Shown here piece by piece: positions 54,576 to 64,000 of a stretch of DNA of 64,000 bases. The stretch's first letter is position 1. Each line of letters starts with the position of its first letter. A program made the translations under genes and the position numbers. A model generated the notes under the pieces. The model had not been told where the DNA came from. It saw only the letters and a list, made by a program, of their open reading frames with translations, and did not search any database. Origin of the DNA: Enterococcus wangshanyuanii (lineage in GTDB: Bacteria > Bacillota > Bacilli > Lactobacillales > Enterococcaceae); NCBI RefSeq assembly GCF_002197645.1, contig NZ_CP021874.1, positions 2,356,001-2,420,000 of the forward strand, given 5' to 3'.

Positions 54576-55412
54576 TTAACCTCGACTCATTTTCTTATTT
54601 CGCTGCATCGTAACGATGACTTTTTTAAATACACTGACCAGAATAAACAATCCGATAAAAATCAATGTGATGCTGGCACTTGGCGGTGTCTCTAAATAAT
54701 AAGAGCCCGTCAATCCTGTTAGCATGCCAATCAATCCCATGATCACACTAATAATGATCACTGTATTAAACCCTTTACCGATCCGCATACCGATCGCAGC
54801 CGGCAAAACCATGATCGCCGAAATCAATAATGCTCCAGCAATTGGAATCATCACCGCAATCGCAATTCCTGTGATCACGTTGAACAACATAGACATCCAA
54901 TGGATCGGCAAACCATCTACATGTGCCGTGTCTTCATCAAATGTCAGTACATACATTGGTCGTTTGAATAAACAAAATAAGACCACTAAAACAACAAATA
55001 AAACGGCTAAAATCACGACCTGCTGCCAAGTGATCGTTACGATCGAACCAAATAAATAGGACTGGATACTTGCCGCAGAATTCCCTCCACTTAAATTCAT
55101 CAGTACTAACGCTAATGCTAGACCGCCTGACATCAAAATAGCAATCGAAATTTCAGAATATGTGCTATAGATCATCCGTAGATATTCCAAAATCACTGCT
55201 GCAATGATCACGACCACCAGCGTCATGATATCCGGATTCCAATTTAGAAAGAACCCTAAAGCAACACCCGCTAATGATACATGAGATAGTGTATCTGCCA
55301 TCAAAGATTGTCTTCTGATGACTAGAAAAACACCTAGCATTGGGGCAATCACTGAAATAAAGGTTGCCGCTAAAAAGGCTTTTCTCATGAACTCATATGA
55401 AAGCATCTCCAA
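54576..55412 (-). CDS. adcB: Zinc/manganese ABC transporter permease
   Basis: The 278-residue membrane protein is an ABC-3 family permease: SVIAPMLGVFLVIRRQSLMADTLSHVSLAGVALG (in parts) and GGLALALVLMNLSGG with about eight helices. It moves Zn2+ or Mn2+ with an ATPase (AdcC) and a binding lipoprotein (AdcA). The start is a TTG at 55412, ten bases after GGAG; the ATG at 55406 is an alternative. The ATPase gene expected immediately upstream is absent: a mobile element integrase lies there instead. Gene symbol by neighbourhood with purR. Confidence 0.85.
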   Translation of the reverse strand: MEMLSYEFMRKAFLAATFISVIAPMLGVFLVIRRQSLMADTLSHVSLAGVALGFFLNWNPDIMTLVVVIIAAVILEYLRMIYSTYSEISIAILMSGGLALALVLMNLSGGNSAASIQSYLFGSIVTITWQQVVILAVLFVVLVVLFCLFKRPMYVLTFDEDTAHVDGLPIHWMSMLFNVITGIAIAVMIPIAGALLISAIMVLPAAIGMRIGKGFNTVIIISVIMGLIGMLTGLTGSYYLETPPSASITLIFIGLFILVSVFKKVIVTMQRNKKMSRG

Positions 55413-55460: not shown

Positions 55461-55482
55461 CGTGAGAACATTCGTGAGAACA
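55461..55482. repeat. Tandem 10-bp repeats near the element end
   Basis: CGTGAGAACA occurs at 55461-55470 and 55473-55482, and an inverted CTCAC follows at 55487-55491. They lie between the integrase stop and adcB, where the attachment site and integrase arm-binding sites of the element should be. The precise core cannot be defined without the other end. Confidence 0.45.
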
Positions 55483-55595: not shown

Positions 55596-56765
55596 TTAAT
55601 TTACTTGATCTAGTTTTTTCACAAGTTCTATATCCTGATTCGGATATAAATGAGAGTATGTTCCCAAAGTCATTTCTATGTTAGCATGTCCTAATCTTTC
55701 CTGTATCATCTTAGGATTCTCACCTAGATAAACCAACAAACTTGCATGAGAATGTCTAAGGTCATGCACGCTAATATAGGGTAATTCCAATTTTTCTTGT
55801 AGAGTTCTAAACTTTTTCCATATCCAGCCTTGATCCAAAAATGTACCATCATGACTAAATACCAACTCAATACCTCCAACTTTTGATTGATAATCTTTCC
55901 ATATTCCAAGTAACTTTAACGTTTTACTATCTACATACAATTCTCTCTCACTACTTTTTGTTTTAGGTGACGACATGTATTGTTCATTTTTATGTTTAGC
56001 TACATTCCCCAAAGTGTATTCAACTTTTAGTTTTCCATTCTCTAAGTCCATATTTTCCCAAAGCAGTGTAGCACTTTCTCCAAACCTTAAACCTGTAAAA
56101 AATAGAAATCTAAAATATAAGTAGTGAAAAAAATCATAGTATTCAGCATAAGCCAAATTCTTTTTTCCCATAACTTTACTTTCAAGTTCTGGTGTAAATA
56201 TTTTTCTTTCAAAATCTTGAAAATCACTAACCGTCCAGAACTTAATTTTTTTTGGATTGTTTCTAACTCTTCCGACTTCACGAAATGGATTCTCTTGCAC
56301 TAAATCAAAAACTTTCGCTCTATCCCAGATCATACCGCCTAATGAAAACAGCAAATTTATATAGCTGCCACTCAAATTTTCAGATACTAGCTGACTTTGA
56401 AACAACTGTACTTCCAACTTAGTAACTTCTCTAAGGTTTTTATCATTAAATATAGAAAAACGTTCTTTTAAATATAGTACCCTTCTGTTGTAAGTGTTCG
56501 GTTTAACTTGTGATTGATACCACGGCAAAAATACAGTATCGGTAAATTCCTTAAAAGTCATATTCTCACTCATTTGTGCTTCTACATCTTCTTGCTGAAA
56601 TTCCCACAAAAGCATAAACTCCATATATGCTTTCTTTGCTTCTCGTTCCGTCTTAAACCCCCTCTTAGTTTTTGTTCTTCTTTTTCCAGTAATAGGATCA
56701 GTACCTAAACTTGCTTTAAAATACCAACCATTATTATCTTTATAAACATTTGATTTTCTAGCCAT
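55596..56765 (-). CDS. int: Tyrosine recombinase (integrase) of an integrative conjugative element
   Basis: The ATG at 56765 (AGAGG upstream) gives 389 residues, starting MARKSNVYKDNNGWYFKASL with the AP2-like arm-binding domain. A SAM-like core-binding domain and the catalytic domain follow, with LRFGESATLLW (first Arg), HDLRHSHASLL (His-x-x-Arg) and LGHANIEMTLGTYSHL (His and Tyr nucleophile). It recombines the element with the chromosome. It lies 184 bases from adcB and immediately after the DUF3173 gene. Confidence 0.93.
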   Translation of the reverse strand: MARKSNVYKDNNGWYFKASLGTDPITGKRRTKTKRGFKTEREAKKAYMEFMLLWEFQQEDVEAQMSENMTFKEFTDTVFLPWYQSQVKPNTYNRRVLYLKERFSIFNDKNLREVTKLEVQLFQSQLVSENLSGSYINLLFSLGGMIWDRAKVFDLVQENPFREVGRVRNNPKKIKFWTVSDFQDFERKIFTPELESKVMGKKNLAYAEYYDFFHYLYFRFLFFTGLRFGESATLLWENMDLENGKLKVEYTLGNVAKHKNEQYMSSPKTKSSERELYVDSKTLKLLGIWKDYQSKVGGIELVFSHDGTFLDQGWIWKKFRTLQEKLELPYISVHDLRHSHASLLVYLGENPKMIQERLGHANIEMTLGTYSHLYPNQDIELVKKLDQVN

Positions 56766-56769
56766 AGAA

Positions 56770-56970
56770 TCAAACCTCTTTTCCTGTTTCAAACTCAAAA
56801 CCAAGCATTTCCTCAACAATCCAACGTGGTACACGTCCTACTCTGGAACCTAGATAAAAAGAGCATCCTCTTTTAGCCATTTCTTGTTTTGCTGATTTTA
56901 TGATTGATCGAGCCTGATATTCACAGTATCCTTTAGCCATCAAATCTTGTTTTGTACATGTTTCTACCAT
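56770..56970 (-). CDS. DUF3173 family protein, putative excisionase of the element
   Basis: The start is the ATG at 56970 after GGAGGGAG. The 66-residue product matches DUF3173: TKQDLMAKGYCEYQARSI, KGCSFYLGSRVG-like core and VPRWIVEEMLG. Genes of this family lie directly upstream of integrases in many Gram-positive conjugative elements, and the small basic winged-helix-like product probably directs excision. It is 4 bases from the int start. Confidence 0.8.
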   Translation of the reverse strand: MVETCTKQDLMAKGYCEYQARSIIKSAKQEMAKRGCSFYLGSRVGRVPRWIVEEMLGFEFETGKEV

Positions 56971-56991
56971 TATACTCCCTCCATATAAAAC

Positions 56992-57020
56992 AAAAAAGGT
57001 ATCGCAATTAAGCAATACCT
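56992..57020 (-). terminator. Terminator before the excision-integration genes
   Basis: AAAGGTATCGC pairs with GCAATACCTTT; on the minus strand TTTTTTG follows. It would stop toxin-cassette transcription before the DUF3173 and int genes. Confidence 0.65.
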
Positions 57021-57102
57021 TTCTTTCCTTATTCTATAAAATTTCCATCGTTGAAATAATCCTCACAAAATTCATCTATTTTAGGTTTTTTACTAATAGT
57101 AA

Positions 57103-57152
57103 AGGTATACGAAAATTTTTAGCTATTTTTTGCTAAAGATTTCCGTATACCT
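57103..57152. repeat. Long inverted repeat after the immunity gene
   Basis: AGGTATACG (57103-57111) pairs with CGTATACCT (57144-57152), continuing inward as AAAATTTTTAGC against GCTAAAGATTT with small mismatches. It could be a terminator lacking a clean T-run, or a recombination-type site bordering the cargo. Confidence 0.5.
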
Positions 57153-57154
57153 AA

Positions 57155-57496
57155 TCAATTAATATCATAAATAGGTGAGTTTAGTCCATCATCTTCCCTA
57201 AATTTATTTATATTACTTATTATCAATTCCTTGTTCATTTTTTCAATTTCTCTAATTGATGTTTCTAATTTTTCAGGAATTAAGCTTGCAACATCTTCTA
57301 ATTCACTGCCTAAGTGAATCGCTGAACCTAATTCAGGAAACTTAGCTTCTAATTTTTCTATATTAAAAGGCTGATACAACAATGCCATCGCATCATCATA
57401 GTTTAATATTCCTTCCTGAATGCATTTCAATAGTCCTAAAGAGACAATAGACAAATATATTTCAGTTGTATTTTGATCTTCTAAATTAATTACCAT
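57155..57496 (-). CDS. DUF3969 family protein, putative immunity to the LXG toxin
   Basis: The ATG at 57496, seven bases inside the end of the toxin gene and after GGAG, gives 113 residues. The segment AIHLGSELEDVASLIPEKL is the conserved block of DUF3969, which is repeatedly found just downstream of LXG toxins. It has no signal peptide, in keeping with a cytoplasmic neutraliser of a nucleic-acid or nucleotide-targeting toxin. Immunity is inferred from position. Confidence 0.75.
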   Translation of the reverse strand: MVINLEDQNTTEIYLSIVSLGLLKCIQEGILNYDDAMALLYQPFNIEKLEAKFPELGSAIHLGSELEDVASLIPEKLETSIREIEKMNKELIISNINKFREDDGLNSPIYDIN

Positions 57497-58923
57497 CCTG
57501 TACTCCACTTTCCTTTCACTTTTACGTTAAACACTCTACCAGATTTACTTTCAAAATAATGAATGGATATTCTCTTTCCTGATTTATCGTAACCATTTTT
57601 ATATACCTTTTTCCATTCTCCAGCTTCAACTCGCCTTAATCCATCTAAGATTGACCCATTATTTACTTTAACTTTTTTTGTACCATTTTTTACTCCAGTA
57701 AACCCTTCTGGATATTGTGGCGCATCTTTTATTCCATTATACGTATTTTTGACTTCAAAATTACTATAGTTATCACCACTCATAATATTTTGGATACTCA
57801 TACCACCGACAGCCGTTGCATGCGCCCAAACACCTAATGTATTTGCTCCCACTGCTGGAATTGCACCTAGACTAGCCCCACCAGTTGCAGGTGCGGTTAC
57901 AAGACTACCAGCCGTACCACCAAATAACCACATAGCACCACCGACGTATTCCGCTCCAGCCTGAAATACACCTAATAAGTTTCCTACAAACACACCTTCA
58001 TTATATCCTTTATGCTGTTGCAGGGAGTCTTTTACATCTCTTTCTCCAAAAAGACCATCCAACAACGCTTTTACACCATTGTTTTCTAATACCTGATAAC
58101 TTGCTCCAGCTAGAAAAGATTTTAATGATTTTAAATCATCTTTTGCGATTTCAACTGCTAATTCATTCGTTGCATCTTTATCTAGTTTACCGTTTCTATA
58201 GACTTCATAAAATGTTTCGCCATTTTGAAGCGTTACTTTTTTCACTTCTAAATTATCTGCATGTCGTTCTTCATACTCTGCCCATTTCGCAGAGATCGTA
58301 TTTTTCCACGAAAGATTTTTCGGCACTATAAACGTTCCTGTTGCCCCATTCCAAGCGGTATTAGCTTGCGCCAATCCTTGATTGACCGCTTGCTGTAAAC
58401 TAGCGATTTCAGAAAAGATAGAAGGAGAACTTCCATTAAATGCCAACAATTTTTGTAGCTGTTCTTCTAGTTTTTGTTTTGTCGCACTATACATGCCGAT
58501 CAACGCTGCATTTCCTAATAACTGAAATGCTTTGGTTGCATCTGGTGTTTTGGACGAATGTAATTCTCTACGAATATTTTCCGCCTGACTCAATAATTGA
58601 TCTGCTTTACGAATATTTTCTTCCAATTCTGATTGTTTCAGATCGCCACTATCCACTTGAGAAATATATTCTTCTGGAAATTTCTTAACGGCTTGTTCAA
58701 CAGCTTCCGATAATAATATACCCCCTTGTGCCAAAGGATATAACACCGTATTAAAATAAGCTTTAGCCGAATCATAAGCTTTCCCCGTCAAGAAAGGACT
58801 TGCGACCACAAAATCAGTGATTGCTTTTTGTAATGCTTGATACCCTTCTGTTTGCGCCTTACACATTGAAGACACGCTAGAAGCTTGACTTTGAGACGAT
58901 GAAACATACATATCAATACTCAT
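57490..58923 (-). CDS. LXG-domain type VII secreted polymorphic toxin
   Basis: The 477-residue protein begins with an LXG domain (about residues 1-200: MSIDMYVSSSQSQASSVSSM, ASPFLTGKAYDSAKAYFNTV, then a long coiled region). A middle glycine-rich pretoxin/translocation segment (about 330-390) leads to a C-terminal toxin module of about 85 residues ending HYFESKSGRVFNVKVKGKWS. I cannot name that module; a small basic RNase-like fold is one possibility. Its start overlaps the previous gene by 11 bases and it overlaps the immunity gene by 7. It is cargo of the conjugative element. Confidence 0.88.
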   Translation of the reverse strand: MSIDMYVSSSQSQASSVSSMCKAQTEGYQALQKAITDFVVASPFLTGKAYDSAKAYFNTVLYPLAQGGILLSEAVEQAVKKFPEEYISQVDSGDLKQSELEENIRKADQLLSQAENIRRELHSSKTPDATKAFQLLGNAALIGMYSATKQKLEEQLQKLLAFNGSSPSIFSEIASLQQAVNQGLAQANTAWNGATGTFIVPKNLSWKNTISAKWAEYEERHADNLEVKKVTLQNGETFYEVYRNGKLDKDATNELAVEIAKDDLKSLKSFLAGASYQVLENNGVKALLDGLFGERDVKDSLQQHKGYNEGVFVGNLLGVFQAGAEYVGGAMWLFGGTAGSLVTAPATGGASLGAIPAVGANTLGVWAHATAVGGMSIQNIMSGDNYSNFEVKNTYNGIKDAPQYPEGFTGVKNGTKKVKVNNGSILDGLRRVEAGEWKKVYKNGYDKSGKRISIHYFESKSGRVFNVKVKGKWSTGW

Positions 58924-59266
58924 TCGTATCCTCCTCTACTAATAATTTTCTTTTTTCATAATTGATATCCTCTAGTAGGTCTACTATTCTCTTCTTTTGA
59001 TCATGGAGTTCTGTTTCATCTATTTCTAAATGTTCTAATATTCTCCTTGATTCTTGAGAATATTCATCCATCAAAGATTGATAAAATGTACTTTGCTCGT
59101 TTTTATGGAATAGATAGCATAAATTATCTAAAAAATAACGTGCTTCATGAAAATGTTGTTCATAGCTTTCTTTTATCCGCTTTACTTGTTTTTCTTCTTT
59201 CTCAATTGTTTCTTCTATTACATACAGTTCTTTTTCTTCTTTTTGAAGTACTTCTAATTGCTTCAT
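58913..59266 (-). CDS. DUF3958-like coiled-coil LXG partner (Lap2-type)
   Basis: The 117-residue protein is one long coiled coil (KQLEVLQKEEKELYVIEETI, VDLLEDINYEKRKLLVEE). DUF3958 proteins sit between a TIGR04197/DUF3130 protein and an LXG toxin and act as targeting partners for type VII export (Lap proteins of Streptococcus intermedius). The order here is identical. It overlaps the genes on both sides by 4 and 11 bases, so the three are translationally coupled. Confidence 0.8.
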   Translation of the reverse strand: MKQLEVLQKEEKELYVIEETIEKEEKQVKRIKESYEQHFHEARYFLDNLCYLFHKNEQSTFYQSLMDEYSQESRRILEHLEIDETELHDQKKRIVDLLEDINYEKRKLLVEEDTNEY

Positions 59267-59553
59267 TTACCCAGACCCCCGAAAGACTGCTCCATTGTAT
59301 GCGCTACTTTTTGATCCAGTGCCTCAAACTCTTTTGCTACGCTTTGAAGATTACTGGAAGCTTGAAAAACTGCTTGTGCAATTTTTGTAGCTGTTTCTTG
59401 AGCTGTTGTGATTGCTTCTTGTGCATTTGTATTACCTGCCACGGTCGTTTGAGTATCTTTAGTAATCGAAGCTGATTGAATCAATTTATCTGTTGCACCC
59501 TTTAATGCAGTAGCTTTTTGACTAGCCCCAGCCAAATCACTTTGTATTGTCAT
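59263..59553 (-). CDS. TIGR04197/DUF3130 small type VII partner (Lap1-type)
   Basis: The 96-residue protein matches the TIGR04197 pattern: MTIQSDLAGASQKATALKGA at the start, an Ala/Thr-rich helical middle, and a glycine-rich end (MEQSFGGLGK). It is WXG100-sized without a WXG turn. As first gene of the cassette it should form the secretion-signal complex with the LXG domain. GAGGG lies before the ATG. Confidence 0.85.
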   Translation of the reverse strand: MTIQSDLAGASQKATALKGATDKLIQSASITKDTQTTVAGNTNAQEAITTAQETATKIAQAVFQASSNLQSVAKEFEALDQKVAHTMEQSFGGLGK

Positions 59554-59650
59554 GAATTATTCACCCTCTTATAGATATTTCATACAACAATAATATCATG
59601 ACGACATTTTTTTGGATAGATACTATTTACTTGACGTACTAATTATGTAT

Positions 59651-59684
59651 AAAATAACCTTCCTTTAACAAAGAAAGGCTATTC
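59651..59684 (-). terminator. Terminator of the transfer operon
   Basis: On the minus strand GAATAGCCTTTC and GGAAGGTTATTTT form an imperfect stem followed by TTTTATAC, 17 bases past the stop of the TcpC-like gene. It separates transfer genes from the toxin cassette. Confidence 0.6.
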
Positions 59685-59700
59685 TGTTAATATTACTTTT

Positions 59701-60249
59701 TTACTTCATTTGGCTTCCTAAAAATTCCACATGATCGATCAACCAATTTCCACTAATTTTTTTTAAATTAATTCGATAGGTTGAGGTTGTCGTTGTTTGA
59801 ACTTGATTCATAATAGTTGTGACTTCCACACTATTTAGAGATACCAGTTCATTTTCTTTTTCATTGGCATAATACGATTCATGACTTACAAGATAAGATT
59901 TTGCTGGAAAATCTTTATCATAGACACCTAGCTTTAACTCTTCACTACAAGCTTTTGTTAACATTGGCACACTAAATGCTTCACGAGTTTCTAAATCTTT
60001 ATACGTGAAGTAGGCTTCTAAAAACTGTTCATTGAATACTTGACCATCATTTTTTTGCTTTTCTTCCTGAACTTCTGGTAGTTCTTCAATAATCGATTCT
60101 TTTTCCTTCACTTTCTTTTCTAACTGACTGATTGTTTGCTCCTGTTTTACCACTTGCTTTTTTAAGTCTTGCGCTGTTGATCGTTGATAAAACAAAACAC
60201 CACAAACAAGCACTAGCCCCATACCGATAATCATATTTTTTACATTCAC
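59701..60249 (-). CDS. Conjugation coupling protein of the TcpC/Tn916 Orf13 type
   Basis: The GTG at 60249 after AGGAGG gives 182 residues; a longer frame would overlap the CHAP gene. One N-terminal membrane helix (MIIGMGLVLVCGVLFYQ) is followed by a coiled coil and an NTF2-like domain (FLEAYFTYKDLETREAF, TSTYRINLKKISGNWLIDHV), as in the VirB8-like TcpC. It should form part of the cell-envelope conjugation channel. It is shorter than the usual 310-residue Orf13, having a single NTF2-like repeat. Confidence 0.75.
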   Translation of the reverse strand: MNVKNMIIGMGLVLVCGVLFYQRSTAQDLKKQVVKQEQTISQLEKKVKEKESIIEELPEVQEEKQKNDGQVFNEQFLEAYFTYKDLETREAFSVPMLTKACSEELKLGVYDKDFPAKSYLVSHESYYANEKENELVSLNSVEVTTIMNQVQTTTTSTYRINLKKISGNWLIDHVEFLGSQMK

Positions 60250-60260
60250 CTTTTTTCCTC

Positions 60261-61355
60261 CTAATCTGCAAAGCGCCATACAACTGCACGCCAACCACTA
60301 GGCGCACTATTCGTGATTCCCTTTCGTTGTCCGACTAAACCAGAGCCACCGGGATTATTACTTTCTACTATATTAATAGTGCCGTCTTTATTGACCGATT
60401 CAACCAACATAGTATGAACGCCTGTATCAAATAAATCTGGATTTCCTAAATTTTCATATTGAATGACATCTCCAGATTTTGCTTGATTCCAAGCCACTTC
60501 TTTTGCGCCCGATTGAAGATAACCAGTTCTAACACCTCCCGGAATAAACGTTCCAGCCTTTGCACCATTGATCCATCCTTGAACAGCTACAATACATTCA
60601 CCACGTCCACCCCAGCCAGTAGGAAATGACTGTCCGACATCTTTTAAGGCTAATTCAACCGCTTTTTTCTTCCAGCCAGTCGCACTATTTGTTCCACTAC
60701 CACTGCCGTTACTATTTAACGTTAAATATTGTTGAACCAATAACACATAAAAGAAATTTCCACCATTTAAATACAAATAGCCTCCATTATAAGGGATTGC
60801 CACAGGGTTAGGGTACGAATACCTCGTACCTGTTGAATTTCCCAACGAAGGCGCAACAACGGTCAAACTGTATTTATCCGCTAATTCTGTACTATGCTTA
60901 TGTCCATTATTAGAAACATAATTATTGTAATTGCGCCCAAAGTTATAAGAAGCAACCGCCGTCCACTTATCATTGCCTAATGTTTTAGCATCTTCAATAC
61001 AGCCTTTATAATGCTTCACACCTTGTGCAATACTAGGTTCTACATCTAATGTATTGACTGGTAGCCCCATACTTTCACTACTTTGCATCACATCACGCCC
61101 ACGACCACCAGTTTCAACCATCATAATCGCAAGTAATGTATCTACTTCATTCGGAATCCCTTCTAGTTTTGCATACTTTTCAACCATTGGACGGTGAAGC
61201 AACACCTCTGGTGACAAATTAATAGAGCCTGTCGATTCATCACTAGCCTGATATTCTTTTTCACTCCCACCACCCAACAATGAAAGTAGAGGTAAGCTAA
61301 AAAAACTTACCACTACAAACAAGCCAATCACTTTTCTTTTTATCGTTTTACGCAT
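60261..61355 (-). CDS. Bifunctional lysozyme-like / CHAP cell-wall hydrolase (Tn916 Orf14 type)
   Basis: The ATG at 61355 (GAGGGTG upstream) gives 364 residues. A membrane anchor (VIGLFVVVSFFSLPLLSLL) precedes a lysozyme-like domain with catalytic Glu in AIMMVETGGRGRDVMQ, then a Gly/Ser linker and a CHAP domain with Cys in GRGECIVAVQGW and His in GVHTMLVES. Such VirB1-like enzymes open the peptidoglycan for DNA transfer. It overlaps the TrbL-like gene by 8 bases. Confidence 0.9.
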   Translation of the reverse strand: MRKTIKRKVIGLFVVVSFFSLPLLSLLGGGSEKEYQASDESTGSINLSPEVLLHRPMVEKYAKLEGIPNEVDTLLAIMMVETGGRGRDVMQSSESMGLPVNTLDVEPSIAQGVKHYKGCIEDAKTLGNDKWTAVASYNFGRNYNNYVSNNGHKHSTELADKYSLTVVAPSLGNSTGTRYSYPNPVAIPYNGGYLYLNGGNFFYVLLVQQYLTLNSNGSGSGTNSATGWKKKAVELALKDVGQSFPTGWGGRGECIVAVQGWINGAKAGTFIPGGVRTGYLQSGAKEVAWNQAKSGDVIQYENLGNPDLFDTGVHTMLVESVNKDGTINIVESNNPGGSGLVGQRKGITNSAPSGWRAVVWRFAD

Positions 61356-63240
61356 ACAGTTGTTCACCCTCATCTATCGAATCCCCACGTAAACCAGACA
61401 ATTCACGATCTAAGCTTTCAAAATATGCTTCGTCTACAATCCGTAAATCTGGTATTGATTGATTGTAAGACACATGATCTTTATACTCATTCATTGCTGG
61501 TGGTTCTTCTTGATAAGAAGAAATTGGATCAAACGATTCATTTTCTTGTTCATAAGAATACACGCCAGATTGCGCCATTCGTTTTTGAAGTTCTTCTTCA
61601 TCTTCATTATCTAGTACAATACTTGCGTAAGGATTATGTTGATTTGCTCTAAGACGGCTTCTTACATCCTCATCATCTTCGGGCATTAAATGTGACGGTA
61701 TAGACGAATAAGGCGTTCCACTTTGAGGAATCACAACACTATCCATATCATTAGAAAGTTCCGATAGGTTCGTTGTTGCTTGATCTGATCCATCCATTGA
61801 GATACTATCCCAAGTTGACGTTTCCGATTGAGACATGTGGTTCATTCCTGATAATTCATTCGGTGATTGTTCATGATAAATACGATCTGTTGACAAATTA
61901 TCTACTGTACTATTTAAAATCGCATCATCTCTTGCCCCAACATGCTCATAATCACTATAATTTCTCGGAATAGTTCCTGATGGTTCCAATTCATCCGGTA
62001 TTTCATCAATACCAGTTCGTTGAGTCCGCTTGCTTTTTCGTCCATTTTTAAAGAAATCCGCTTCATTAGAAAAGTCTTTCGTAGAACCTAGCTCACTAAC
62101 ACTAACCTTATTTCCTTTCGCTAAATTCATAATGGTATTCCGTTTTCGCCAAATAATAAGTAATGCCCCAGCTTTTAGTACAAAACTGAGTAAAAACGAA
62201 TCTAAATTTGCGCCACCAAAGAAACGATCCACTAAATCAAACAATAGAAAGACTAAACCAAAGCCTAAGCCTAACAATCCTTTGAAAAAGAAAATCCCAA
62301 CTAACAAGGCACCGCCATTTTTTGCGACATCTTCTTTGTCTGGAAATAAGGAAATACCCAACAGAATTGGAAACACTAAGATCAATAACAATGCCAGCAA
62401 CTGCAATAACGGATTCAAAATGGAAATCACTAAGACCACCGCACCTAAGACAATGACATTCACAAGGGTTGTTAAGCCAATAAAGAATTTTTCATGAAAG
62501 CTATCTGAACTCATATAATAATTATTTTCGCTCGATTCTTTGATCGCTTTCTCTATTTTTTCATTTTTAGCTTTCTTATCTTCTCCTTTGACAACTAAAA
62601 ACTCTTTATACTTATCAGCTTTAATATCTGTTTTACCAAAATTAATCAACGCCCACGGTTTTAACACGGTCATTGTATAAAAACTATTTCGTATCGAATC
62701 TGTACTTGTTTGTTTGCCTTCACCGCCAAGCTCCTTATACAACGAATTGTTCAATTCTGAAATATCAGGTGAAACCACTGCTGTTAAATCGGCTTGTAGT
62801 TGACCACTAATAGCGTTAAAATCTTTAATCGTTTGACCACCATTAGAGAAAAAGCCGTTCCCAAACCCTAAGATAACAAAAAAGATAAATAGACGGACAA
62901 ACGCACGTCCGCCACTTTTAAAGTAGTAATCTTTCACCACATACATAATGACCATTGCAAAGAAAAACAGCCCAAACATATTGAAAAATTGATTCCAAAT
63001 GCTTTGCGCTGTTGTTAAAATACTATCCACACTTTCACTTAGTAGATTGAGCGTATATAATTTTTCAATCGCTGTATCGACCATGTTTGCGAGCATTTTT
63101 GCTAAAGAAAAAGGAATAGTTAACACAGAATGTAACATGCCCATTCCTTTTTCATCTAAGCCAAACCCCCAAAACGAGCCTTCAAAAGAAAATAGACTTT
63201 GTATGGATTTATCATCAAAAAATTCACGTAATATCAACAA
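61348..63240 (-). CDS. TrbL/VirB6-type conjugation membrane protein (Tn916 Orf15 type)
   Basis: The 630-residue protein has about seven membrane helices between residues 35 and 370 (for example FFNMFGLFFFAMVIMYVV and VILGFGNGFFS; later LLALLLILVFPILLGISLF) and a long hydrophilic acidic tail of about 250 residues. This is the layout of the inner-membrane channel component of Gram-positive conjugation systems. It lies 17 bases after the VirB4-like gene. Confidence 0.85.
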   Translation of the reverse strand: MLILREFFDDKSIQSLFSFEGSFWGFGLDEKGMGMLHSVLTIPFSLAKMLANMVDTAIEKLYTLNLLSESVDSILTTAQSIWNQFFNMFGLFFFAMVIMYVVKDYYFKSGGRAFVRLFIFFVILGFGNGFFSNGGQTIKDFNAISGQLQADLTAVVSPDISELNNSLYKELGGEGKQTSTDSIRNSFYTMTVLKPWALINFGKTDIKADKYKEFLVVKGEDKKAKNEKIEKAIKESSENNYYMSSDSFHEKFFIGLTTLVNVIVLGAVVLVISILNPLLQLLALLLILVFPILLGISLFPDKEDVAKNGGALLVGIFFFKGLLGLGFGLVFLLFDLVDRFFGGANLDSFLLSFVLKAGALLIIWRKRNTIMNLAKGNKVSVSELGSTKDFSNEADFFKNGRKSKRTQRTGIDEIPDELEPSGTIPRNYSDYEHVGARDDAILNSTVDNLSTDRIYHEQSPNELSGMNHMSQSETSTWDSISMDGSDQATTNLSELSNDMDSVVIPQSGTPYSSIPSHLMPEDDEDVRSRLRANQHNPYASIVLDNEDEEELQKRMAQSGVYSYEQENESFDPISSYQEEPPAMNEYKDHVSYNQSIPDLRIVDEAYFESLDRELSGLRGDSIDEGEQLYA

Positions 63241-63257: not shown

Positions 63258-64000
63258 TTAAGCAGCGAACATTTCTTCTGATCGACCTGTTGTTGTTTCT
63301 TCAACTGTTTTGAACATTTCAATTAATTCTTCAAACGGACAATACACTAGAATACGATTCACACGACCGTACAAATCTTTATACAGACAATGTCTTGCTG
63401 GCATAGTGGCTAACCAGTCTAAGTTATCCTCATTCACTTCTAAGCCCATATGTTCTAAAATCAGCTCTCGTTCATCTGTTTTATCAAACGCAAAAATACG
63501 ACCGAAGTTTCCGCTCTCATCATCCGTATTGACATCACGAATCGATTGTGTAATTAAAATTAATTGATTATTTTGTGATCGACCGACTTTTCGCATATCG
63601 GCTACAACATCTGATCCCCCGCGAGCAACCGTGAATATCCACGCTTCATCAAAGGCAACATACGTGTGTTCCGCATAGTCACGCTTTCCGAATTGTTCAC
63701 AGAACTTCCCTAAAGGCAACATCAATGCAATATTTTTCTTTTGTACTGCTGAATAACTTCTGGGATCATCCGTTGCTTTCGGCAATTTTAATCCAGCAAT
63801 TTCTAAAATCGTTACCTTATTTGTTAAATTCAACCCTTCTGTATCACCATAAGAAAATGCTAACTGTAATGTACTGCCTTCTACAATTTCAAATAAAGCA
63901 TTACCACTTTTCTTCACTTCTTCATTATTCGATTGCTTCATTCGTGTAATGACATGCATTAGACCTACTTTTTCACCCGCTTCACGCTCTGCAATCACTT
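63258..64000 (-). CDS. VirB4-type conjugation ATPase, C-terminal part
   Basis: The gene runs off the right edge, so its start is outside the window; about 247 residues are visible. They contain the Walker B region YVAFDEAWIFTVARGG and the following ILITQSIRDVNTDDESG, as in TraC/VirB4 ATPases (Tn916 Orf16). It powers the secretion channel. The remaining transfer genes, the origin of transfer and the other attachment end lie further right. Confidence 0.9.
   Translation of the reverse strand, partial: VIAEREAGEKVGLMHVITRMKQSNNEEVKKSGNALFEIVEGSTLQLAFSYGDTEGLNLTNKVTILEIAGLKLPKATDDPRSYSAVQKKNIALMLPLGKFCEQFGKRDYAEHTYVAFDEAWIFTVARGGSDVVADMRKVGRSQNNQLILITQSIRDVNTDDESGNFGRIFAFDKTDERELILEHMGLEVNEDNLDWLATMPARHCLYKDLYGRVNRILVYCPFEELIEMFKTVEETTTGRSEEMFAA

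What the first reader, a model, noticed from the sequence alone, without database searches (positions are those of the whole stretch)
57155..59553. Complete LXG toxin cassette in the cargo slot of a Tn916-family element
In Tn916 the space between orf13 and the xis-int module carries tetM. Here the same place holds a TIGR04197 protein, a DUF3958 protein, an LXG toxin and a DUF3969 immunity gene, insulated by terminators on both sides. Conjugation would spread the toxin with its immunity, so the element could protect or advantage its carriers like a bacteriocin plasmid. The 85-residue toxin module is unassigned.
Basis: partly seen in the sequence, partly recalled or inferred. Interest (0 to 1): 0.75.

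Follow-up and report, generated by a model that had tools for sequence, protein, structure and literature searches.

The report
Conjugative element carrying a secreted-toxin cassette
A 30-kb self-transfer element in an enterococcal chromosome carries a compact set of genes for a secreted antibacterial toxin, its two export helpers and its predicted antidote, so a contact weapon and its immunity could spread together from cell to cell.

Summary
Confirmed: window 57155-59553 (- strand) holds an intact cassette, TIGR04197 (Lap1), DUF3958 (Lap2), LXG toxin, DUF3969, between hairpin terminators. It lies inside an apparently complete, about 30-kb integrative conjugative element (C1 2411387-2441359) with integrase, MobT relaxase, coupling and mating-pore genes, and end repeats.

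The cassette is cargo. A sister element in the same genome (tra proteins mostly 97-100% identical) lacks it. A relative with the same integrase has other cargo. Homology to a chromosomal copy in E. moraviensis ends at both junctions. A second, different tra module (G076) carries an LXG nuclease in the same position.

Corrections: it is not strictly Tn916-family (integrase, excisionase slot and TcpC position differ). LXG genes sit mostly outside such elements: 3 of 150 listed matches were found inside one. The 92-residue toxin module has no Pfam or NCBIfam name; with DUF3969 next to it, it recurs in Rhs- and CdiA-type loci, so DUF3969 is most likely its immunity family. Its activity is unresolved.

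Best reading: a T7SS effector-immunity cassette picked up as ICE cargo, working like a contact bacteriocin on a mobile element. Export, killing, immunity and transfer are inferred, not shown.

The parts
59263..59553 (-). Lap1-type targeting factor (TIGR04197, 96 aa), with DxxTxxxGN and FxxxD motifs
   Evidence: NCBIfam TIGR04197 E 2.6e-23; motifs found; motif roles from PMC9600955 passages
58913..59266 (-). Lap2-type targeting factor (DUF3958, 117 aa)
   Evidence: PF13125 E 1.2e-19
57490..58923 (-). LXG effector (477 aa): LXG domain about 1-195, middle region, C-terminal toxin module about 386-477
   Evidence: PF04740 E 1.3e-9; toxin module defined by 13 homologues
57493..57768 (-). toxin module (92 aa), conserved SIHYF..SGxVFxVKV..WS; no Pfam or NCBIfam family
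   Evidence: model pLDDT 82
57155..57496 (-). DUF3969 protein (113 aa from the ATG), predicted immunity protein
   Evidence: PF13108 E 1.3e-10; beside the toxin module in each of eight loci looked at
57090..57160 (-). hairpin terminator behind the cassette
   Evidence: -24.6 kcal/mol, z -7.6
59636..59700 (-). hairpin terminator between transfer operon and cassette
   Evidence: -15.7 kcal/mol, z -4.5
57145..59653 (-). extent of DNA homology to the chromosomal cassette of G079 (E. moraviensis), 83.6% identity: the transferred unit
57029..57082 (-). last 17 codons and stop of an ICE gene that is whole (172 aa) in G089: scar of the cassette's arrival
56770..57015 (-). DUF3173 protein, in the excisionase position
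   Evidence: PF11372 E 5e-20; excisionase role inferred from position and size
55596..56834 (-). tyrosine integrase (412 aa)
   Evidence: PF00589 E 2.7e-21, PF14657 E 1.7e-14
55387..55411 (.). attachment repeat at the integrase end, 25 bp identical to the ATPase-side copy at C1 2618299-2618323; 16 bp of it also at C1 2441344
59701..60294 (-).
   Evidence: NF042930 E 7e-5, below cut-off
60261..61373 (-). lysozyme/CHAP cell-wall hydrolase (relative of Tn916 orf14, 38%)
   Evidence: PF13702 E 1.4e-58
61348..63240 (-). CD3337/EF1877 membrane protein (mating pore)
   Evidence: NF046089 E 8.3e-50
63258..64000 (-). VirB4/TcpF-type ATPase, running off the window (835 aa in full)
   Evidence: PF12846 E 1.7e-95; NF052333 E 3.2e-49, below cut-off
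54576..55412 (-). ABC permease gene (metal-type, by eye) whose 5' end is the attachment site; chromosomal flank, not part of the element

Best explanation
The four genes are a type VIIb secretion (T7SSb) effector-immunity cassette that entered, as cargo, a MobT-type integrative conjugative element related to Tn916, ICESt3 and ICEBs1. Mechanism: Lap1 and Lap2 bind the LXG domain and lead the toxin to the host's own T7SSb (EssC is encoded about 60 kb away). The 92-residue C-terminal module enters a neighbouring cell and poisons it, and DUF3969 in the producer neutralises that module. When the element excises at its end repeats and conjugates, toxin, export helpers and immunity arrive together, so a recipient that has a T7SSb becomes immune at once and becomes an attacker. 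Shown: gene content, cargo insertion, intactness, purifying selection since the split from the E. moraviensis copy, the toxin/DUF3969 pairing across delivery systems, T7SSb in the host, a complete transfer gene set. Inferred: export, killing, neutralisation, transfer, advantage.
For: Cassette families and motifs (Lap1/Lap2 role from passages of PMC9600955). One 30-kb stretch with integrase, DUF3173, MobT, FtsK-type coupling protein, TcpC, TcpD, TcpE, TcpF, CD3337 and lysozyme genes. End repeats. Sister ICE L023 with seven of eight tra markers 97-100% identical (MobT 93%) and a 123-bp slot without the cassette. Junctions at 57081-57145 and 59653-59697. Second tra module with an LXG nuclease in the same position, L066. 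EssC at C1:2474978. dN/dS 0.06 for LXG. Toxin module with DUF3969 in LXG, Rhs- and CdiA-type contexts.
Against: No transfer, killing or export was measured. Selection measured against the E. moraviensis copy may predate arrival in the element. The same genome has a decayed copy of the cassette (C1 3646.5-3647.9 kb), so copies can be lost. I found only 3 of 150 listed LXG matches in such elements. The right end now flanks another locus after an apparent inversion, so excision is not assured. oriT was not looked for.
Confidence: 0.75

Rival explanations
1. Passenger: LXG cassettes shuffle through enterococcal genomes and one happened to land in an ICE; it gives the element nothing and will decay.
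For: Close relatives sit at several chromosomal sites: after a feoB-like gene (L040), after an eno-like gene beside an IS200-like transposase gene (L041), in L042/L043 with shared flanking genes, and as a remnant between ebfC- and recR-like genes in the same genome (gene names given by eye). 3 of 150 listed matches were found in such elements.
Against: Intact, dN/dS 0.06-0.23, hairpins on both sides, and another tra module with another LXG toxin in the same position.
Confidence: 0.3
2. Element-stabilising (addiction-like) pair: the toxin acts inside carriers or their descendants and DUF3969 protects while the element is kept.
For: Toxin and predicted antidote are adjacent and co-encoded.
Against: The toxin has the export architecture with both targeting factors, and the genome has EssC; addiction toxins need neither. 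The module occurs with Rhs- and CdiA-type delivery proteins.
Confidence: 0.08
3. Host-directed effector rather than an antibacterial toxin.
For: T7SSb substrates can act in virulence (general knowledge; e.g. the EsxX title in the listing).
Against: A neighbouring DUF3969 gene in each of the eight loci looked at, in bacteria as different as Enterococcus, Moraxella and Pseudomonas, argues for a bacterial target that the producer shares.
Confidence: 0.05

Closest known systems
Lap1-Lap2-LXG effector operons (TelC, TelD of Streptococcus intermedius)
   Same: Lap1, Lap2 and an LXG effector in one operon; DxxTxxxGN and FxxxD in Lap1 (PMC9600955 passages)
   Different: The toxin module and DUF3969 partner are other families, and the operon is cargo of a conjugative element
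LXG cassettes on staphylococcal plasmids (e.g. pRMLUG4_1, NZ_CP084441.1)
   Same: TIGR04197, DUF3958, LXG, then a DUF443 gene, on a mobile replicon (annotation)
   Different: DUF443/DUF4176 instead of DUF3969; a mobilizable plasmid, not an ICE
ICEPm2 of Proteus mirabilis BL95, an ICE carrying a CDI operon (PMC11278526, abstract and outline seen)
   Same: A contact toxin-immunity system as ICE cargo
   Different: Gram-negative, CdiA delivery; not compared here by sequence
Tn916-type element of pCF10
   Same: MobT, FtsK-type, VirB4-type, VirB6-like and lysozyme genes in the same general order, cargo next to xis-int
   Different: 22-38% identity, other integrase and excisionase families, TcpC elsewhere, a specific insertion site
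CdiA/Rhs-type toxins with DUF3969 (Moraxella bovis plasmids, Pseudomonas aeruginosa, Enterococcaceae Rhs loci)
   Same: Same toxin module, 55-64% identity, DUF3969 gene next
   Different: Delivered by other systems

Membership tests
T7SSb LXG effector operon | N-terminal LXG domain | tested here: met
   PF04740 38.7 bits, cut-off 26.5
T7SSb LXG effector operon | Lap1 with DxxTxxxGN and FxxxD, and Lap2/DUF3958, upstream | tested here: met
   motifs defined in PMC9600955
T7SSb LXG effector operon | immunity gene downstream that neutralises the toxin | not testable with these tools
   a DUF3969 gene is there; neutralisation not measured
T7SSb LXG effector operon | T7SSb machinery in the host | tested here: met
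   EssC model TIGR03928, 1807.9 bits, cut-off 778.4, at C1:2474978; other T7SSb genes not searched
T7SSb LXG effector operon | export by T7SSb | not testable with these tools
   needs a secretion assay
Integrative conjugative element | integrase, relaxase, coupling ATPase, VirB4-type ATPase and pore genes in one element with end repeats | tested here: met
   the MobT, TcpF and FtsK matches in NCBIfam are below those models' cut-offs, Pfam matches for relaxase, ATPase, TcpC and TcpE are above
Integrative conjugative element | excision and conjugal transfer | not testable with these tools
   needs circle PCR and mating
Integrative conjugative element | oriT | not tested
   no search made
Tn916 family | conjugation proteins homologous to Tn916 | tested here: met
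   22-38% for TcpF, MobT, FtsK, lysozyme and CD3337 proteins; TcpC pairwise not significant (E 0.16) but same Pfam family
Tn916 family | Tn916-type integrase (PF02920 N-domain) | tested here: not met
   present in the pCF10 element, absent here; PF14657 instead
Tn916 family | Tn916-type excisionase (PF09035) | tested here: not met
   present in the pCF10 element; DUF3173 here
Tn916 family | TcpC-type orf13 as last transfer gene before the cargo | tested here: not met
   pCF10: PF12642 next to tet(M); here PF12642 lies between MobT and TcpE, and an EF0163-like gene stands before the cargo
Known nuclease toxin folds such as RelE/BECR (considered) | fold match of the toxin module | tested here: inconclusive

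The most novel reading that the evidence does not exclude
The stretch behind the EF0163-like gene, downstream of the pore genes of enterococcal MobT-type ICEs, is a recurrent cargo slot for T7SS effector cassettes: conjugation delivers a full weapon, export helpers and immunity at once, turning T7SS-bearing recipients into immune attackers that exclude cells without the element. DUF3969 would be a cross-system immunity family for an undescribed toxin fold.
Probability: 0.3. Interest if true: 0.75.

Novelty: new variant of a known kind. Interest (0 to 1): 0.5.

Why it matters
It links two systems usually studied apart: T7SS antagonism and conjugation. The paired elements in one genome (with and without the cassette) make a natural test of whether a mobile element profits from carrying a contact weapon. 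Independently, the toxin module with DUF3969 recurs in LXG, Rhs- and CdiA-type loci, which gives a testable function to an unnamed domain and to a DUF that no paper of the held library mentions by that name.

Tried and rejected

Print: one search lists 8 papers that hold both 'LXG' and 'integrative and conjugative element'; I saw passages of 6 and only the listing of 2. None of the passages describes an LXG cassette on an ICE; one reports an LXG gene among SPBc2-phage-like genes of Bacillus velezensis (PMC10719345). (641 papers with two of four terms, 25 listed, none of these with LXG) is not conclusive; searches showed no such report in their listings or in the passages opened. PMC4701971 and PMC4202715 were seen as passages on ICEs. 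One search was a side search. The library holds open-licence papers only.
Full report
WHAT IS THERE. The window is C1:2356001-2420000 of a 4.16-Mb genome. On the - strand, 59553 to 57155, four overlapping genes encode TIGR04197, DUF3958, an LXG protein of 477 aa and a DUF3969 protein. TIGR04197 carries the DxxTxxxGN and FxxxD motifs described for Lap1, and DUF3958 is Lap2 (PMC9600955, passages). Hairpins that fold better than 200 of 200 shuffles lie on both sides and before the DUF3173 gene.

THE ELEMENT. The stretch continues to the right of the window (L009, L010). In order it holds integrase, DUF3173, cassette, EF0163-like protein, lysozyme/CHAP protein, CD3337/EF1877 membrane protein, TcpF-type ATPase (835 aa), TcpE, TcpD, TcpC, MobT-type relaxase and an FtsK-type protein (499 aa, closed frame), then further genes, an LPXTG surface protein and a regulator. 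None of these named ORFs is interrupted. The EF0163, TcpF, MobT and FtsK matches in NCBIfam are below those models' cut-offs; relaxase, ATPase, TcpC and TcpE pass in Pfam, and the FtsK-type protein is 38% identical to that of the Tn916-type element. Repeats mark the ends: 16 bp at window 55387 and C1 2441344, with an inner 17-bp repeat at 55466 and C1 2441241. The element is thus C1 2411387-2441359, about 30.0 kb.

THE ATTACHMENT SITE. The left end lies in the first codons of an ABC permease gene (metal type, by eye). The matching ATPase gene sits 206 kb away on the other strand, next to a second element, and its junction shares 25 bp with the left end here. In 22 genomes of the genus permease and ATPase genes are adjacent in 14. 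In 7 (G000, G089, G079, G088, G084, G082, G085) no permease gene follows within the fetched 1.5 kb and the sequence diverges right after GGAGATGCTTTCATATGAGTTCA; in G076 a gap of about 0.7 kb separates the two genes. An integrase of this kind stands beside the permease gene in three of the seven: G000, G089 and, broken, G082. In G089 integrase and TcpC lie between the two genes, all on one strand. I did not open the inserts of G079, G084, G085 and G088, so a recurrent element site is likely, not shown.

CARGO, NOT CORE. Three comparisons place the cassette as an insertion. (a) L023 (C1 2117-2135 kb, beside a guaA-like gene by eye; continued in L073) has EF0163-like, lysozyme, CD3337, TcpF, TcpE, TcpD and TcpC proteins 97-100% identical and MobT 93%, but another integrase, and only 123 bp between the EF0163-like and DUF3173 ORFs. 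(b) L020 (G089) has the same integrase and DUF3173 (95%, 93%) but other tra genes and a 4.4-kb cargo that includes a homing-endonuclease-repeat protein. (c) L040 (G079) has the cassette at 83.6% DNA identity behind a feoB-like gene, with no match to a tra marker in the 20 kb. DNA homology to the element runs up to 57081 on one side and from 59697 on the other; homology to the chromosomal cassette fills 57145-59653. The gene of 172 aa before DUF3173 in G089 is cut to its last 17 codons here.

OTHER TOXINS, SAME PLACE. One search found 195 LXG matches in 30 of 105 genomes of the family (sum) and listed 150. Six of these 150 lie within 15 kb of a TcpC or DUF3173 match. Opened by eye, three are inside an element: the window; G076:C16 (L066), where TcpC, TcpE, TcpF, CD3337, lysozyme and EF0163-like genes are followed, after one 133-aa ORF, by a 140-aa protein without family and an LXG protein with a DNA/RNA non-specific endonuclease domain (E 3.5e-26); and G085 (L033), an LXG cassette (with a TIGR04197 match and a below-cut-off Ntox30 match) behind DUF3173 and an integrase at a guaA-like gene, without a tra marker match in the fetched 18 kb. 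Two (G091, G000:2170449) lie outside the integrase end, and one (G077) was not opened. No match to the two integrase markers was seen in the 34 kb fetched around L066, so the ends of that element are not known. Forty-five of the 195 matches were not listed and so not examined, and other kinds of mobile element were not screened.

THE TOXIN MODULE AND DUF3969. The last 92 residues match no Pfam or NCBIfam model. The protein database gave 14 proteins at E <= 0.01, among them LXG proteins of Enterococcus and Listeria and an RHS protein. An alignment of 22 sequences keeps 28 positions invariant, among them W52, K54, Y56, S68, H70, Y71, F72, K83, W88 and S89. The two E. coli rows are identical and hold a stop at the place of W52, L059 holds one at the residue before; these letters were left out of the count, and two rows cover only residues 35-89. 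In eight loci where the module's neighbour was looked at (window, L040, L047, L058, L059, E. coli L060/L061 counted once, P. aeruginosa L062, M. bovis L063) a DUF3969 gene follows within 300 bp. This is no blind sample: L058, L059, L040 and L047 also appeared in the DUF3969 search; the four plasmid records were chosen by the module alone, and other module-bearing plasmid records and the phage record were not opened. In L062 and L063 the carrier is a DUF637 or filamentous-haemagglutinin protein; in L058 a small ORF with the module stands beside an RHS-repeat protein, and the E. coli records carry RHS annotation. So the pair has been moved between delivery systems as a unit. DUF3969 also occurs in G006, G013 and G014, where (whole LXG query, E <= 1e-10) saw no module; I did not open those. 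In L040 a second DUF3969 match, with one stop inside, follows the first.

HOW IT MOST LIKELY WORKS. Lap1 and Lap2 deliver the LXG protein to EssC, which this genome encodes. The module poisons a touching cell; its invariant His, Lys, Arg, Ser and Trp residues suggest an enzyme, perhaps a nuclease, but that is a guess. DUF3969 protects kin. Carriage on a conjugative element would make new carriers immune at once and, where a T7SSb is present, armed. Of 30 LXG-positive genomes four (G010, G050, G062, G070) have no EssC match above cut-off, so cassettes travel beyond the machinery, or those assemblies are incomplete. Purifying selection between the two intact copies is shown; selection on the element-borne copy since its arrival is not.

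COMPARED WITH WHAT IS KNOWN. The operon is a normal member of the Lap1-Lap2-LXG kind. The element is a MobT-type ICE of the ICESt3/Tn916/ICEBs1 superfamily (name from an abstract in the listing), not Tn916 proper. guaA and 5'-end sites of genes are in print as ICE sites (PMC4701971, passages); the word permease does not occur in that paper's main text. A contact-toxin operon on an ICE has a Gram-negative precedent (PMC11278526, abstract and outline), and an LXG cassette with both Lap-type genes is annotated on a staphylococcal mobilizable plasmid. I found no report of an LXG cassette on an ICE, within the limits of that library and of what I opened.

Noticed in passing
window 54576-55412 and C1 2616528-2618325 (L012): An ABC transporter operon is split: permease at 2411 kb on the - strand, substrate-binding and ATPase genes at 2618 kb on the + strand, each next to an ICE end; best explained by an inversion of about 207 kb through recombination between two elements that share stretches of 81-99% identity.
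   Followed up: partly
L080-L101 (22 genomes of the genus): The 5' end of that permease gene is interrupted at the same sequence in 7 of 22 genomes: a likely insertion hotspot.
   Followed up: partly
L010 11386-14763 (C1 2441385-2444762): A second LXG cassette (DUF4176, DUF443, LXG; two small genes in the Lap positions and a WXG100-like gene by eye) begins 25 bp beyond the right end repeat of the element, followed by recombinase- and methylase-like genes.
   Followed up: partly
L047 9461-10863 (C1 3646.5-3647.9 kb): Decayed copy of the same cassette in the same genome, between ebfC- and recR-like genes (by eye), with a DUF3969 gene still open.
   Followed up: partly
C1 2618.3-2648 kb (L012-L014): Another ICE of this kind, no LXG match in it, integrase beside a ychF-like gene by eye.
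   Followed up: partly
whole genome G000: 17 LXG matches in one genome, 14 of them over the family cut-off: a large toxin arsenal.
   Followed up: no
G010, G050, G062, G070: LXG matches in genomes with no EssC match above cut-off.
   Followed up: no
L062 (P. aeruginosa NZ_CP116719.1, 1-6583): Behind the module and DUF3969 stands a row of further toxin- and immunity-like genes (deaminase, EndoU by annotation), as in CDI loci.
   Followed up: no
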